Shown: one piece after another, positions 2,593 to 10,279 of the stretch
Layout of the letters: every line of letters begins with the position of its first letter
Numbering within the stretch: position 1 is the stretch's first letter
Assembly (NCBI GenBank): GCA_029254745.1
Contig: JAQWWZ010000008.1
Span: 1-39,366 of the forward strand
Direction: 5' to 3'
DNA length: 39,366 nucleotides
From: Opitutales bacterium
Lineage (GTDB): Bacteria; Verrucomicrobiota; Verrucomicrobiia; Opitutales; Seribacteraceae
Program-made: the position numbers and the translations under genes
Notes under the pieces: generated by a model
The model's database searches: none
Told to the model about the DNA's origin: nothing
Seen by the model: only the letters and a program-made list of their open reading frames with translations

Positions 2593-5500
2593 TTACTTCT
2601 TTTCTTCGATTTCGATCGCATCTGAATCTGCTGGATCGAAAACATTGTAAATTTCACGATCCAAGGAACTTATACTACCGATTTCATTGAGGTTTACATT
2701 CTGTTCAAGAACTGGATTGAGAGCATTTAGGTAATCATCCATGATAGTAATTCCAGCAGATGAGAATTCAGTAATTCTACCTTTCCCCGTAATCAAACCA
2801 ATAGATGGGATCTTGATCTTCTCTAAACCAGCAGTGTTTGAAAGAGTCAAACCAGCACTGGAAGAACCCGTTGAAGTTGACGCAGTTGCTATATCATAAT
2901 TTGTTCCAACATTAAGTTCAAATGAAGAGCTATTAATGGTTGCATCACTTGTTACTGCAATACTATCACCGGCATATACATCCACACTGGCTCCAACAAC
3001 ATTGCTATTAATGGTAACATCATCAGTAATATCAGACCCCGCAGCTACGAGTAGTACTTCTCCTGCCTTCGCGTCTATGGCTGCATTAATGGTAAGTGGA
3101 CTTTTTGCGACAAGGGAAACTGTTCCTGTAGCATCGGCATCGGTAAATTGAATTCCCTGAATATTTGTAAGTTCACTGATCACTAGCCCCCCCGTGTTAA
3201 CTACATCGATATTTCCTGTTCCAGACTGAGCAGCCAATTGAAGACCATCGCCTGTAGATACTACAGAAACTCCTTCAGTCGCACTTACCTGAACTGTTTC
3301 AGCCGTAAGATTAGTAGAAGTGAAAACACCACTCTCTACAATATAAACGTCCTCAGCAATTACCGTAAAATCACCAAAGGTTGATGCTTCATTAGTAAGG
3401 CTTACAGCTTGCCCTGAAGCATTGATCGTAGTGGCACCGGTAATAGCTAAGAGACCGCTGTCCGTAACTGCTCCCGCTGAGGTAACACCGAGGGTTCCGC
3501 TCACTGTACTAGCACCTAAGTCTACTGCTCCGGCATCGGTAACCGCCACATTAGCTCCAGTTAAAGCTAAGGTTCCAAAGGTCGAGGCTGCTTCATCCAA
3601 GGTAATATCTTGCCCGCTTGCACTAATCGTAGTCGCCCCAGAAATCGTCAAGGTTCCACTGTCCGTAACCACTCCAGTTGAGGTAATAGCCAGGGTTCCG
3701 CTCACCGTACTCGCTCCCAAGTCAGTCGCTGCATTCTCCGTTACCGCAACATCCGCACCGGTTAACTCTAAGGTTCCAAAGCTCGAAGCTGCTTGGTCTA
3801 GAGTAATATTCAGCCCACTTGAACTAATCGTAGTCGCTCCATTGATCGACAAAGTTCCACTATCCGTAACCGCTCCCCCTGAAGAAATACTTAGGGTTCC
3901 ACTCACTGTACTCGCTCCCAAGTCAGTCGCTGCATTCTCCGTTACCGCAACATTCGCTCCAGATAATTCCAAAGTTCCAAAGGTCGAAGCTGCTTCGTCC
4001 AAGGTAATATCCTGTCCGCTTGCACTAATCGTAGTCGCTCCCGTGATCGCTAAAGTTCCGCTGTCTGTAACCTCTCCCCCTGAAGTTGCGCTCAGACTAG
4101 CTGCACTTAAAGCTTTCAAATCTAAAGCCGTAGTGTCTACTATGCTTACCGCACTTCCACTGTCGGTTGCGAAGGTTACGGTTCCACCAAAAGCATTGCT
4201 GACGTCATCCAAGGTAATCGCATCATCGGTTCCAGCAGTATTAGTGAAGGTTGCATCTCCAGTAATCACCTGGGTTCCACTGTCCGTGATCGCTCCACCT
4301 GAGGTGATATCAAAGGTTCCGCTCACCGTGCTAGCTCCCAAGTCAGTCGCTGCATTCTCCGTTACCGCAACATTTGCTCCTGTTACACTAATCGTTCCAA
4401 AGGTAGAAGCCGTATCGCTCAAGGTAATATCCTGACCACTCGCACTGATCGTTGTCGCCCCTGTAATCGCCAGGGTTCCGCTATCGGTCACTGCTCCACC
4501 AGTTGTTACGCTCAAGCTCGCTGCACTCAGAGCAACCAGGTCTAAGGCCGTGGTATCTACGATAGTCACTGCACTTCCACTATCGGTGGCAAAGGTTACA
4601 GAACCTGTAAAGGCATTCCCACTGTCATCCAAAGTAATCGCTTCATCTGTTCCCCCACTATTGGTAAAGGTTGCATCTCCAGTAATTGCTAAAGTTCCAC
4701 TGTCAGTAATCGCTCCAGTTGATGTAATGCCTAAAGTTCCACTTACGGTGCTCGCTCCTAACTCAGTAGCGGCCGCTTCAGTGATGGCCACATTCGCTCC
4801 GGTTACACTAATCGTCCCAAAGGTTGATGCCGATTCACTCAGGGTAATGTCCTGTCCACTCGCACTAATCGTAGTCGCCCCCGTAATCGCTAAGGTTCCA
4901 CTATCGGTCACCGCTCCCCCTGAAGTTGCGCTCAAACTAGCCGCACTCAAGGCTTTCAAATCCAAAGCTGTCGTGTCCACTATGCTCACCGCACTTCCAC
5001 TGTCAGTTGCAAAGGTTACGGTTCCCCCAAAGGCATTACCAGCATCGTCTAGGGTTATTGCATCATCGGTGCCGGCGGTATTAGTAAAGGTTGCATCTCC
5101 AGTAATTGCCTGAGTTCCACTGTCGGTGATGGATCCACCTGATGTGATACCAAAAGTTCCACTCACCGTATTTGCACCTAAGTCAGTCGCTGCATTTTCG
5201 GTAACCGCCACATTCGCTCCCGTTAAAGCCAGGGTGCCGAAAGTGGACGCTGCTTGGTTCAGAGTGATATTCTGTCCGCTTGCACTGATCGTGGTCACTC
5301 CAGTGATCGCTAAGATCCCGCTATCGGTCACTGCTCCTGTTGAGGTAATGCCCAAAGTACCACTTACTGTACTCGCTCCTAAGTCCGTCGCTGCCGCTTC
5401 AGTTACAGACACATTGGCACCGGTTACACTGATCGTCCCAAAGGTCGAGGCTGCGTCGCTCAAGGTAATATCCTGGCCAGTCGCACTGATCGTTGTTGCC

Positions 5501-8500
5501 CCGCTAATTGCCAAAGTTCCGCTATCAGTCACTGCACCACCGGCTGTTACGTTCAAGCTCGCTGCACTCAGGGCAACTAGGTCTAAGGCCGTAGTATCCA
5601 CGATAGTCACTGCACTTCCACTATCGGTGGCAAAAGTTACTGTTCCGGTAAAGACATTTGCACTGTCATCCAAAGTAATCACTTCATCTGTTCCCCCACT
5701 ATTGGTAAAGGTGGAAGCTCCAGTAATTGCTAAAGTTCCACTGTCAGTGATCGCTCCAGTTGATGTAATTCCAAAAGTTCCACTCACCGTACTCGCTCCA
5801 AGATCCGTCGCTGCCGCTTCAGTTACGGCCACATTGGCTCCGATTACACTAATCGTTCCAAAGGTGGAAGCTGTTTCACTCAAGGTAATATCCTGTCCAC
5901 TCGCACTGATCGTTGTTGCCCCGCTAATTGCCAAAGTTCCGCTATCAGTCACTGCGCCACCGGCTGTTACGCTCAAGCTCGCTGCACTTAGAGCAACTAG
6001 GTCTAAGGCCGTAGTATCCACGATAGTCACTGCACTTCCACTATCTGTGGCAATAGTTACTGTTCCGGTAAATGCATTCCCTGCGTTATTCAAAGTTATA
6101 ACTTCATCCGTTCCGTCAGTATTTGTAAAGGTCGACGCACCCGTGATCGCTAACGCTCCACTGTTGATAATCGCTCCTCCTGAGGTGACACCAAATGTTC
6201 CACTTACGACAGAGGATGCAAGATCAACTGCATCAACATCAAGAATAGAGATGTTGGCACCCGTAACACCGATTGCTCCAAAGTTATTAGAAGAATCATC
6301 GAGGGTTATATCTAACCCAGAAGCAGAAATAGTCGTAGTACCGGGAACGATTAATGATCCAGAATCCGTAACTGCACCAGTGGCAGTAATTGAAAGATTG
6401 TCCCCTTCTCCAAGGGTAATAGCAGGCAGTGCAAGAGCAACTCCACCTGCAGTTTGAAGAGTGAGGCTGCCTGCGACTTGCGTACCAGTGATTGGACTGA
6501 GGGAAATTCCGCTCAGATCTCTGAAGCTGACATTGTTGCCAGAAGTAACGGTGATGGTCCCGAAATCATTTGAAGCGTCTGAAAGAACAATATCATTAGA
6601 TAACCCTGCAGCTAAGGTCGTGGTTTGACCATTATTTAAAATTGAACCTGTTTGAGTAATCGCCCCTGAAGAAGTTAAGTTGACCGAGCCACCAGAGCTT
6701 AAGGAAGCAATCTCTAAAGCTCCTGCGGAATTTTCGAAGGTAATTGCATCAGAAACCGCACTTGCTGATAAAGAAGTGCCAGCTATTGCTGCAGAATTAG
6801 ATGAAATACTTCCAGAACTCGCTGTAAGATCTACTGTGGCTACCGTTCCAAAATCAATAGGTTGAATGCCTCCAATTGATGTACCTACTAAAGTAACTGA
6901 ACCGGCTACGAAATCGATCGTTGAATCACTTACGGCATCGTTGATAGTGCCAGAAGTTGCCTCTATTGTAGCCGAGCCCGACCCAAGGCTTATGGAACCA
7001 ACAGACAAGTCCCCTGTGGAAGCTGTAATCTCTACATTACCGTCATTGGTGACGAGGTTGAGCTCACCACCTTTAAATTTGGTGGATTGTATAATAGAAC
7101 CAGTTTCACTTGTTGTGAGGGACAAATTTCCTGCCGTTACATCACCGACATAAATGGCAGATCCACCAGAGCTTGAGGTTAAAGTATTGGATCCAATATC
7201 GATATTTCCGATTGTCTGAATTCCACCCGGCCCAGCTGTGAGATTTAAGTTTCCAGTCAAAGAAATATTTGCACCGTATGAACTCGTCAATTGATCGCTA
7301 GCAATTAAGGTTAAATCATTTCCTGAAGAGCTGGTTATGGAGGTTGCAACCGTCAAATCTCCTCCATTTGGTGCATCGTATGAATCATTAACCGTAGTTA
7401 CGGTTATATTATTAGATGCCAAAGCAGTAACTAAATCATCAACATTAAGAAATGTCGTTGTAGAAGAAGAATCATAAGTACCACCATCAAGAGAAAGATT
7501 CGAGGTTGAAGAGCTTGTGATCGTGATATCAACCGGATCGATGAGAAATTCACCTGTTTTACCATTTAAGGCAGTTGTTGATACATGCGAACCACTCAGT
7601 TCAATATTAAGTAATCCAGATAATTCAATAAAACCACCATCTCCTCCTTCTGCCCCCCCTACGGCACTAATAACGGCACCGGGTTCAAAGGAAGCTGAAT
7701 TCTCAGAAAAATAAATGATTTCACCACCATTCCCAACCATACCACCATCTGCGATGGTTGAACTTTTAGTTGAAGCAATTACATTATCACTACCCGTAAC
7801 GAGAACATTACCACCATTGCCGTTAGAACTTGAAGCATCGATTAAACCATCTTGAATGGCAGTACCTTCAAGGAGACCAGAAATATCTAAGGAAATAACT
7901 CCTCCGGATGCTTCTCCAACTTGGAATGTTGTACCGGAGGCTAACAAACCAACCGCACCGCCATCCGATAAAATAGAACCGGAGTTAACGACATCACCAC
8001 CGATGAGAGCCGCAAATTCATCTGCTTTGATTGAGCCAAGATTCATGACCTTTGTTTCGGAATCACCATCGAAAGAAATATTTCCGGAAAGGAATGCCGA
8101 ATCAGCAAGGTCTAGCGAAGATGCAATCAATGCGTGTACATCCACCTGGGCGTCCGAACCGAATATAATACCATTGGGGTTAATTAAATACAGATGGCCG
8201 TTAGCATTCAGGGAACCGTGAATCTCAGAAAGGTTGCTTCCTACGACTCGCGACAGCATAGCTGCATCAATATTGGGTTGTACGATATCAACCAAAGCAC
8301 CGTGGCCAATGTCGAAGCTTTCCCAGTTTACGATCGCAGATTGTGTGCCTTGGATAATACGCAAGGAATCAGTCGAGGTATTCTGGAGCTCGACTTGACC
8401 ATGGACGATATCTGCACCGGTCGGTAGGCTCGCTGCTAGAGCAGCACCTGGAGCGCCGATGATAAAACCAAAAAGACCCAAGGTCATAAGAATAGCACGA

Positions 8501-8601
8501 GATGTGTCAAAGATGGATGCTTTGGCTATCCTAAATGTTTTGCGGTTACGATTTGCCCAAATACGAAAGTTCTTGGAGAGGGAATTTTTTAAATTCTTCA
8601 T
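2593..8601 (-). CDS. Two-partner secretion exoprotein (TpsA), FHA-type, with long modular repeats
   Basis: This 2002-residue protein carries the TPS secretion domain of filamentous-haemagglutinin-type exoproteins directly after an extended signal peptide: a basic region to about residue 35, a hydrophobic core (about 37-52), and likely cleavage after ALA at 54-56. The TPS domain (about 58-175) has IVHGQV, NWESFDIG and the hallmark NPNGIIFG at 141-148. The rest is Ser/Thr/Gly/Ala/Asp-rich and fits a beta-helix, with 67- and 73-residue modules over about 755-1730. I see no cysteine. The last ~60 residues are non-repetitive and end in an acidic then lysine tail. It is likely secreted by the barrel protein encoded 23 bases upstream and may act in adhesion or as a cell-surface fibre; the target is unknown. 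There is no clear RBS before the ATG, so coupling to tpsB is plausible. Confidence 0.9.
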   Translation of the reverse strand: MKNLKNSLSKNFRIWANRNRKTFRIAKASIFDTSRAILMTLGLFGFIIGAPGAALAASLPTGADIVHGQVELQNTSTDSLRIIQGTQSAIVNWESFDIGHGALVDIVQPNIDAAMLSRVVGSNLSEIHGSLNANGHLYLINPNGIIFGSDAQVDVHALIASSLDLADSAFLSGNISFDGDSETKVMNLGSIKADEFAALIGGDVVNSGSILSDGGAVGLLASGTTFQVGEASGGVISLDISGLLEGTAIQDGLIDASSSNGNGGNVLVTGSDNVIASTKSSTIADGGMVGNGGEIIYFSENSASFEPGAVISAVGGAEGGDGGFIELSGLLNIELSGSHVSTTALNGKTGEFLIDPVDITITSSSTSNLSLDGGTYDSSSTTTFLNVDDLVTALASNNITVTTVNDSYDAPNGGDLTVATSITSSSGNDLTLIASDQLTSSYGANISLTGNLNLTAGPGGIQTIGNIDIGSNTLTSSSGGSAIYVGDVTAGNLSLTTSETGSIIQSTKFKGGELNLVTNDGNVEITASTGDLSVGSISLGSGSATIEATSGTINDAVSDSTIDFVAGSVTLVGTSIGGIQPIDFGTVATVDLTASSGSISSNSAAIAGTSLSASAVSDAITFENSAGALEIASLSSGGSVNLTSSGAITQTGSILNNGQTTTLAAGLSNDIVLSDASNDFGTITVTSGNNVSFRDLSGISLSPITGTQVAGSLTLQTAGGVALALPAITLGEGDNLSITATGAVTDSGSLIVPGTTTISASGLDITLDDSSNNFGAIGVTGANISILDVDAVDLASSVVSGTFGVTSGGAIINSGALAITGASTFTNTDGTDEVITLNNAGNAFTGTVTIATDSGSAVTIVDTTALDLVALSAASLSVTAGGAVTDSGTLAISGATTISASGQDITLSETASTFGTISVIGANVAVTEAAATDLGASTVSGTFGITSTGAITDSGTLAITGASTFTNSGGTDEVITLDDSANVFTGTVTFATDSGSAVTIVDTTALDLVALSAASLNVTAGGAVTDSGTLAISGATTISATGQDITLSDAASTFGTISVTGANVSVTEAAATDLGASTVSGTLGITSTGAVTDSGILAITGVTTISASGQNITLNQAASTFGTLALTGANVAVTENAATDLGANTVSGTFGITSGGSITDSGTQAITGDATFTNTAGTDDAITLDDAGNAFGGTVTFATDSGSAVSIVDTTALDLKALSAASLSATSGGAVTDSGTLAITGATTISASGQDITLSESASTFGTISVTGANVAITEAAATELGASTVSGTLGITSTGAITDSGTLAITGDATFTNSGGTDEAITLDDSGNAFTGSVTFATDSGSAVTIVDTTALDLVALSAASLSVTTGGAVTDSGTLAITGATTISASGQDITLSDTASTFGTISVTGANVAVTENAATDLGASTVSGTFDITSGGAITDSGTQVITGDATFTNTAGTDDAITLDDVSNAFGGTVTFATDSGSAVSIVDTTALDLKALSAASLSATSGGEVTDSGTLAITGATTISASGQDITLDEAASTFGTLELSGANVAVTENAATDLGASTVSGTLSISSGGAVTDSGTLSINGATTISSSGLNITLDQAASSFGTLELTGADVAVTENAATDLGASTVSGTLAITSTGVVTDSGTLTISGATTISASGQDITLDEAASTFGTLALTGANVAVTDAGAVDLGASTVSGTLGVTSAGAVTDSGLLAITGATTINASGQAVSLTNEASTFGDFTVIAEDVYIVESGVFTSTNLTAETVQVSATEGVSVVSTGDGLQLAAQSGTGNIDVVNTGGLVISELTNIQGIQFTDADATGTVSLVAKSPLTINAAIDAKAGEVLLVAAGSDITDDVTINSNVVGASVDVYAGDSIAVTSDATINSSSFELNVGTNYDIATASTSTGSSSAGLTLSNTAGLEKIKIPSIGLITGKGRITEFSSAGITIMDDYLNALNPVLEQNVNLNEIGSISSLDREIYNVFDPADSDAIEIEEKK
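3400..6400 (-). repeat. Nested tandem repeat array inside tpsA: 201-bp and 219-bp modules
   Basis: One anchor (ATCGT or its variant in the plus-strand reading, the complement of the TTIS codons) recurs at 3425, 3626, 3827, 4028, 4448, 4868, 5288, 5489, 5909 and 6329. The spacings are exactly 201, 201, 201, 420, 420, 420, 201, 420 and 420. Module A (201 bp, 67 aa) contains TTISASGQDITL and ends LGASTVSGT. Module B (219 bp, 73 aa) contains TFTN and SGSAVTIVDTTALDL. In protein order the array reads A B A B A A B A B A B A A A A, the outermost copies being most diverged. Two versions of B alternate (DLVAL with FTG, DLKAL with FGG), so an 840-bp higher-order period is also visible, for example 4201 against 5041. 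Confidence 0.95.
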
Positions 8602-8624: not shown

Positions 8625-10166
8625 TTAGAAACGAAAGTTAATGCTGAAATGGGCACGGGCGTCATAAGAGCTCGTATTTAAAGTATCTGTGATGGGCACG
8701 CCCACCTGAAGGGAGATGTCTGTATTATCTTCAAAGTTACCCAGTAATCCGGCACCAAAGCTTTGCATACCAACCGAATCATTGGCCGCAGCCATAAGTC
8801 CTTCATTGGAGACATACCCCGCATCGTAGAAGAAAACTTTTTGTAAGTTACCATCTAATCCGAAAATGGATGTCGCTTCAGAAGCCAGAGAATACTCAAA
8901 GTTCATGCTTATTCCGCTATCCCCGTATGCTTCTCGCTCTCGATATCCACGAATTGAAGACATGCCTCCAATTGACTTTTTTAAGCTTGTGGGCAGGGGC
9001 TTATTGGAAGATTGTGCATCAATCTTTAGCTTAATCCCACCATTTTGATCCGAAATAGTGATGGGCTCAACTACAACCAATGAGATGCGAGGTACATAAA
9101 ATCCTTTTTTTATTTCAGGATTCTGAACAATGAGTTCTTGCTCATCAGAGCTACTTACATCAGAAATTACGCCAATTGACCAAAAGCTGGACCCTTGGAG
9201 ACCACCCGGATTGGAAAATTTTCCTTGAAAACCAACTCTAGGTAGAAACAGGGATAAATCTTCATCACTTGCCAACAAATTGTTACTTCCAAGGTATATT
9301 TGGCTACTCAAGTCCAAATAACTCACCCCAAAGCTGAAGGCCAATGAGTCGGGATTATCTGCATCCAAGGAGAATAGCCCTGAATATCCGGCAAAAAAAC
9401 CATCACCTGCAATATCCATATCAAGAGAAGATGAAGTAACATTTTCATACTCTGAATCCGAATAACCAGCGTATAAACTGTGACTAAAACCATCATAACT
9501 GAATTGATAACTCGCAAAGTAAGATGAAAGCTGAGACGCATCCTTTGGGTCCAAGGTGTAAGAAAAATTTATTCGGTCATTGGCAAGAAAACTCTCCCAA
9601 ACCTCAAAGCCCACTGTTGACCTCCAGCCTGAGGACTGATCTGTGCCATCATTGGACACTTTAACATACGGGCTAATTGGGTATTGATCCTTTACATTAA
9701 AATTGGCGTCAACTTGGACCTCTCCGTTATGGCCACGAACGGGCTTCAACTTAGAATCAACTTGTACGAAACGATATTTATTTAAACGGGAAGATTGACT
9801 GTGAAATTTTGAATAATTAAATGGTTCCCCAGTATTCCAACTTAAATTATCGAGAATGCTTTCTTCTCCCAGGTACTCATTGCCTGTTACCTTAGCTTTT
9901 CCCATAAAGCCTGGTTTTACCTCCAATGTCGAAACACCTGCAGTTTCAGAAATAGAAACTTGTGCAAAAGTAAAGCCCTGCTTGATTAAAAATTCCTTCA
10001 GGCGATCCGTGGTCTTTTTCTCAGAAAGGTTCTTATTGTCTTCAAGGAAGCCAAAAATGATAGGTTTGAGTTGATTCGGGGATACAACTCTATAGCTCAC
10101 GCCTGCTTTCAAAGTCAAGATTGACAGCAACATAATGCTTACACCAGTTAAGAAGAAGCTTTTCAT
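8625..10166 (-). CDS. Two-partner secretion outer-membrane transporter (TpsB, ShlB/FhaC family)
   Basis: The 513-residue product starts MKSFFLTGVSIMLLSILTLK, a good signal peptide. A periplasmic POTRA-like region follows (about 30-165: a FTFAQVSISE strand, then VTGNEYLGEESI), and then a beta-barrel domain to the end. SSIRGYRE near residue 403 is the conserved loop-6 RGY/F motif of Omp85/TpsB transporters. The protein ends in Phe (INFRF), the usual outer-membrane C-terminal signature. An in-frame GTG at 10211 would add 15 residues before the signal peptide; I prefer the ATG at 10166, although neither has a clear Shine-Dalgarno site. Its job would be to recognise the TPS domain of the downstream exoprotein and move it across the outer membrane. 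Confidence 0.88.
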   Translation of the reverse strand: MKSFFLTGVSIMLLSILTLKAGVSYRVVSPNQLKPIIFGFLEDNKNLSEKKTTDRLKEFLIKQGFTFAQVSISETAGVSTLEVKPGFMGKAKVTGNEYLGEESILDNLSWNTGEPFNYSKFHSQSSRLNKYRFVQVDSKLKPVRGHNGEVQVDANFNVKDQYPISPYVKVSNDGTDQSSGWRSTVGFEVWESFLANDRINFSYTLDPKDASQLSSYFASYQFSYDGFSHSLYAGYSDSEYENVTSSSLDMDIAGDGFFAGYSGLFSLDADNPDSLAFSFGVSYLDLSSQIYLGSNNLLASDEDLSLFLPRVGFQGKFSNPGGLQGSSFWSIGVISDVSSSDEQELIVQNPEIKKGFYVPRISLVVVEPITISDQNGGIKLKIDAQSSNKPLPTSLKKSIGGMSSIRGYREREAYGDSGISMNFEYSLASEATSIFGLDGNLQKVFFYDAGYVSNEGLMAAANDSVGMQSFGAGLLGNFEDNTDISLQVGVPITDTLNTSSYDARAHFSINFRF

Positions 10167-10279
10167 AATAGTAAAAGGGGGTAATGGTAATTGGTCAGTA
10201 TTGTAAATCACAAGTTTGAAGTAATTTTGGCAACACTTTAATGTTGAGAATTTTTTAGATTTTGAAAGAAAAGGGTATT

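What the first reader, a model, noticed from the sequence alone, without database searches (positions are those of the whole stretch)
3400..6400. Ultra-regular two-module repeat array in a TPS exoprotein with exact 201/219-bp length conservation
Ten A modules (67 aa) and five B modules (73 aa) run with no indel: anchor spacings are exactly 201 or 420 bp across 2.9 kb. The DNA copies are very similar but not identical, and B versions alternate as an 840-bp higher-order unit. This implies expansion by unequal crossing over or gene conversion with a strict structural length limit, as expected if each module adds fixed turns to a beta-helix. Copy number probably varies between strains.
Basis: partly seen in the sequence, partly recalled or inferred. 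Interest (0 to 1): 0.6.

Follow-up and report, generated by a model that had tools for sequence, protein, structure and literature searches.

The report
Repeated stalk of a secreted surface protein
A marine-type Verrucomicrobiota bacterium carries an ordinary kind of giant secreted surface protein whose rod-like stalk is built from fifteen modules of two fixed lengths; the regularity is real, but the module family and the secretion system are already known.

Summary
The regularity is real. On the minus strand, a 2002-aa two-partner-secretion exoprotein (8601-2593) holds 15 contiguous modules at 6369-3265: A B A B A A B A B A B A A A A, ten of 67 aa (201 bp) and five of 73 aa (219 bp), with no length-changing indel within either class. 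The modules belong to the known Pfam repeat DUF5649 (PF18886). The protein has a TPS secretion domain and an adjacent TpsB gene. AlphaFold gives a confident all-beta solenoid (pLDDT 93.7); A and B carry about the same number of strands (about three coils), so B differs by loop residues.

DNA copies are not 'very similar' (interior A 69-87%, B 68-91%); most pairs approach synonymous saturation with dN/dS about 0.1, so likeness is held mainly by purifying selection. A few interior pairs are younger than the species split, and edge modules pair with their orthologues, which fits slow whole-module turnover. The 840-bp higher-order unit is not supported: B subtypes run b1 b1 b2 b1 b2. In relatives DUF5649 spacing drifts (67-75 aa), so the length limit is not strict. 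Strain copy number could not be counted: relatives' contigs break inside the array.

The parts
2593..8601 (-). tpsA-like exoprotein gene, 2002 aa
   Evidence: ORF; PF05860 TPS domain and PF18886 repeats; TIGR01901
8431..8601 (-). N-terminal extended signal-peptide-like segment (aa 1-57, ...GAALAA)
   Evidence: read directly from the translation; cleavage site inferred, no predictor run
7783..8424 (-). TPS secretion domain with NPNG motif (aa 60-273)
   Evidence: PF05860 E 2e-19, located again; sequence relatives EtpA, HMW1-type adhesin and HxuA in the PDB
6442..6657 (-). degenerate DUF5649 module upstream of the array (aa 649-720)
   Evidence: profile hit 21.7 bits; PF18886 hit at aa 621-686
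3265..6369 (-). regular module array A1 B2 A3 B4 A5 A6 B7 A8 B9 A10 B11 A12 A13 A14 A15 (A 67 aa, B 73 aa)
   Evidence: predicted beta-solenoid for A8-A12
2596..3264 (-). conserved C-terminal region (aa 1780-2002): solenoid predicted to continue to about aa 1922, then a partly conserved low-confidence tail ending in an acidic stretch
   Evidence: alignment A2; model; no Pfam family
8625..10211 (-). TpsB transporter gene (ShlB barrel, POTRA), 23 bp upstream of tpsA
   Evidence: PF03865 E 5.5e-16, PF07244 E 1.7e-4

Best explanation
The array is the stalk of a type Vb (two-partner) secreted beta-helical exoprotein, probably a surface adhesin or fibre. The TPS domain is handled by the adjacent TpsB (shown by homology); the chain then folds outside the cell into a long solenoid (predicted). 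Each DUF5649 module, A or B, contributes about three coils; B is the same module with six extra residues in turns. Module number therefore sets stalk length and surface area. The array grew by old in-frame duplications of one to several modules, with a few later duplications or exchanges in its interior, and its amino-acid sequence and length are kept by purifying selection because a length change inside a coil would disturb stacking. Shown: anatomy, homology, divergence pattern. Inferred: solenoid geometry, adhesive role, recombination mechanism, reason for the length conservation.
For: TPS domain, ShlB/POTRA partner and 16 DUF5649 stretches. Exact module lengths. Confident all-beta model of ABABA, pLDDT 93.7, pTM 0.89, with about nine to ten strands in both A and B; best structural neighbours are beta-solenoids including the EtpA repeat region (8vbb, Z 15.1, 334 residues, rmsd 5.9). 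dN/dS about 0.03-0.28 for the computable module pairs apart from A15. Edge modules group with orthologues (A15 group support 100, A1 group 85) and interior A3/A5/A8 group together (95). Youngest interior pairs have pS 0.21-0.36 (B4/B9, B2/B4, A3/A5, A12/A13) against 0.57-0.81 between species. The second module of a congener (G002) is nearer to window B11/B7 (80/78% DNA) than to its positional counterpart B2 (71%).
Against: No Foldseek match to the PDB reached E 0.001, so the fold assignment rests on the model and on VIA Z-scores among Foldseek's own candidates. No adhesive domain was identified. Corrected dS is unreliable near saturation. The congener's second module is cut by the contig end, and tree support for its placement is only 71.
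Confidence: 0.82

Rival explanations
1. The array is a hot, recently homogenised repeat (frequent gene conversion or unequal crossing over), so that copies look alike because they are young.
For: Interior modules are closer to each other than to orthologues at the edges, and exact runs of 46-55 bp occur. Contigs of 10 of 12 relatives break inside their arrays (about 2.0-3.6 expected).
Against: Most pairs are near synonymous saturation (pS above 0.5) with dN/dS about 0.1, so resemblance is largely selective. Contig breaks have other causes such as strain mixtures, and the terminal sequences of most broken contigs are not repeated within the fetched part of the contig.
Confidence: 0.15
2. The protein is a CdiA-like contact-dependent inhibition effector with the repeats as its filament.
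For: Same secretion route and filament fold class.
Against: No Pfam family in the C-terminal 223 aa. The C-terminus is conserved across genera (38-82% identity) while the stem differs between congeners, the reverse of a hypervariable toxin tip.
Confidence: 0.05
3. The exact regularity is partly an assembly product: identical copies may have been collapsed, or the array may join sequences of different strains in a metagenome bin.
For: The genome is a 72-contig draft, and arrays in related genomes are fragmented.
Against: Copies differ enough (longest exact run 55 bp) to be separated by ordinary reads; the frame is open throughout; no further DUF5649 piece lies elsewhere in the assembly.
Confidence: 0.1

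Closest known systems
DUF5649 repeat (Pfam PF18886), listed as a stalk domain of fibrillar adhesin-like proteins (PMC8286594)
   Same: The modules match the profile over nearly its full length, 16 stretches, 560.7 bits
   Different: Here two exact length classes, 67 and 73 aa, persist over 15 modules; relatives mix 67-75 aa
EtpA of enterotoxigenic E. coli
   Same: TPS exoprotein with TPS domain followed by a repeat-built beta-helix; its four 228-residue repeats have nine turns each (PMC10284417); its repeats can confound short-read sequencing (PMC6897418)
   Different: Sequence similarity found only in the TPS domain; EtpA repeats are much longer; its known ligand, blood group A glycan, is not implied here
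FHA / HMW1 / HxuA TpsA proteins
   Same: Secretion-domain homology (2odl, 4i84, 4rm6), beta-helical fold class, NPNG motif
   Different: No detected sequence similarity outside the secretion domain; functions differ

Membership tests
Two-partner secretion exoprotein (TpsA) | N-terminal TPS domain with NPNG motif | tested here: met
   PF05860 E 2e-19 over aa 60-273; NPNG at aa 141-144
Two-partner secretion exoprotein (TpsA) | cognate TpsB (POTRA plus ShlB/FhaC barrel) encoded next to it | tested here: met
   528-aa ORF 23 bp upstream on the same strand, PF03865 and PF07244
Two-partner secretion exoprotein (TpsA) | beta-helical stalk | tested here: met
   by prediction only: pLDDT 93.7, all-beta; beta-solenoid neighbours
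Two-partner secretion exoprotein (TpsA) | export that depends on the partner TpsB | not testable with these tools
   needs an experiment
DUF5649 (PF18886) | score above the gathering cut-off | tested here: met
   560.7 bits against 25
CdiA/BcpA contact-dependent inhibition effector | hypervariable C-terminal toxin domain | tested here: not met
   C-terminus conserved across genera, no Pfam family there
CdiA/BcpA contact-dependent inhibition effector | adjacent immunity gene | not tested
   the gap 1926-2592 was not examined for small genes

The most novel reading that the evidence does not exclude
In this genus the stalk of one orthologous TPS exoprotein is a replaceable cassette: the secretion head and a conserved C-terminal region with an acidic tail stay, while the stalk between them is swapped or re-expanded in whole beta-helix modules, so that stalk length and surface change without disturbing secretion or the C-terminal end.
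Probability: 0.35. Interest if true: 0.4.

Novelty: new member of a known kind. Interest (0 to 1): 0.2.

Why it matters
It is a clean natural example of how a predicted beta-helical stalk grows in whole-coil steps, with two module lengths that seem to keep the same coil count, and it shows that a striking repeat at the protein level can be old and selectively held rather than freshly copied. It adds an uncultured Verrucomicrobiota lineage to the record of DUF5649 stalks, for which no solved relative was found by sequence.

Tried and rejected
Higher-order 840-bp unit: tested by shift-by-shift identity and rejected. Strict length limit: rejected as a general rule from relatives. Copy number across relatives: tried with contigs of 12 genomes; not countable because contigs break inside the array. 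Sequence search of solved structures with the array profile: no relative. Foldseek: no match at E 0.001 or better. Literature on DUF5649: one paper, a listing only. The plus-strand ORFs opposite the array (3422-4435, 4550-5113, 5126-6457) were taken as by-products of the repeated codon pattern and were not searched further. The promoter and terminator scan gave nothing above the shuffled background.

Full report
What is there. The array lies in a 2002-aa minus-strand ORF, 8601-2593. The protein carries a TPS secretion domain (PF05860, aa 60-273) and 16 DUF5649 stretches (PF18886, 560.7 bits), and its gene is preceded, 23 bp upstream on the same strand, by a 528-aa ShlB/POTRA protein; TIGR01901 also matches. 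It is therefore a two-partner-secretion pair. The window is contig C53 of a 2.45-Mb draft genome in 72 contigs; the nearest named relatives of the TpsB are uncultured Opitutales/Verrucomicrobia assemblies.

The modules. Fifteen contiguous modules run A1 B2 A3 B4 A5 A6 B7 A8 B9 A10 B11 A12 A13 A14 A15 at 6369-3265; A is 67 aa, B is 73 aa, and all spacings are exact. A and B are homologous: B has extra residues at about three places (alignment). A degenerate module precedes the array (aa 649-720), and the last A is strongly diverged.

How alike the copies are. Protein identity among interior A modules (A3-A14) is 72-91%, among B 71-95%; DNA identity is 69-87% and 68-91%. Proportions of synonymous difference are mostly 0.5-0.9, with dN/dS near 0.1. 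The array as a whole is therefore old, and its likeness is largely kept by selection on the protein. The least diverged pairs are B4/B9 (pS 0.21), B2/B4 (0.33), A3/A5 (0.33) and A12/A13 (0.36). Between this species and congeners G002, G022 and G026 the same gene and its tpsB differ at pS 0.57-0.81, so these few pairs are younger than those splits. This uses Nei-Gojobori counts on short modules, so single values are noisy.

Pattern of change. Edge modules pair with the edge modules of other species, interior ones mostly with each other. The second module of G002 resembles window subtype b2 rather than the b1 module at the same position (tree support 71). This is the expected trace of whole-module unequal recombination in the interior, at a slow pace. 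The proposed 840-bp higher-order unit fails: shifts of 420, 1041 and 1461 bp give longer or stronger block matches, and the order of B subtypes is b1 b1 b2 b1 b2.

Length constraint. In relatives DUF5649 spacings run 67, 68, 70-73 and 75 aa, with some intervals of 100-106 aa. A short class and a long class occur there too, but lengths drift. The exactness here thus reflects shared ancestry of the copies plus selection against indels, not an absolute limit.

Structure. A model of A8-A12, made with a 12-row alignment, has mean pLDDT 93.7 and pTM 0.89 and is all beta. The strand list gives about nine or ten strands in A and in B alike, which I read as three coils each, near 22 and 24 residues a coil; coil number was not measured on coordinates. 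Structural neighbours are beta-solenoids, among them the EtpA repeat region (Z 15.1, rmsd 5.9), though Foldseek E-values are weak. The solenoid is predicted to go on to about aa 1922, followed by a low-confidence tail. The precedent is EtpA, whose 228-residue repeats have nine turns each (PMC10284417). TpsA proteins in general carry long stretches of imperfect repeats in beta-helical folds (PMC5422565).

Copy number. Only one genome per species is held. In 10 of 12 relatives with DUF5649 arrays a contig end falls in the array, where 2.0-3.6 would be expected from contig counts. That estimate is rough: the array was taken as 3.1 kb in all, contig counts were rounded by the tool, and genomes were chosen because they matched. 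It says that the arrays are hard to assemble or vary in the population; it does not give copy numbers.

Stem replacement. G011, G005 and G021 share the TPS domain (68-78% identity) and TpsB (55-70%) with the window but not the stem (26-34%). C-terminal regions close to the window's occur in G011 and G021 (73% and 58%), but on other contigs, so that head and tail belong to one gene there is inferred. The C-terminal region is conserved across two genera and ends in a motif like NSGSIEIEE.

Verdict. A real regularity in a known kind of protein.

Noticed in passing
window 2596-2832 (aa 1924-2002) and loci L066, L062, L064, L067, L075, L076: The last 79 residues are predicted with low confidence, yet parts are conserved across two genera and end in an acidic motif (NSGSIEIEE or similar) whose role is unknown; it could be a surface-retention or sorting signal.
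   Followed up: partly
L078 (G000:C32:1-18000): A second TPS exoprotein of the same genome, open frame 3965 aa and running off the contig, with an unrelated repeat of about 87 aa; it too has its own ShlB-like neighbour.
   Followed up: partly
window 3422-4435, 4550-5113, 5126-6457 (+): Long open frames opposite the array on the plus strand, probably a by-product of the repeated codon pattern.
   Followed up: no
L008, L077, L065: Congeners with the same secretion domain and TpsB but a different stem that does not match DUF5649.
   Followed up: partly
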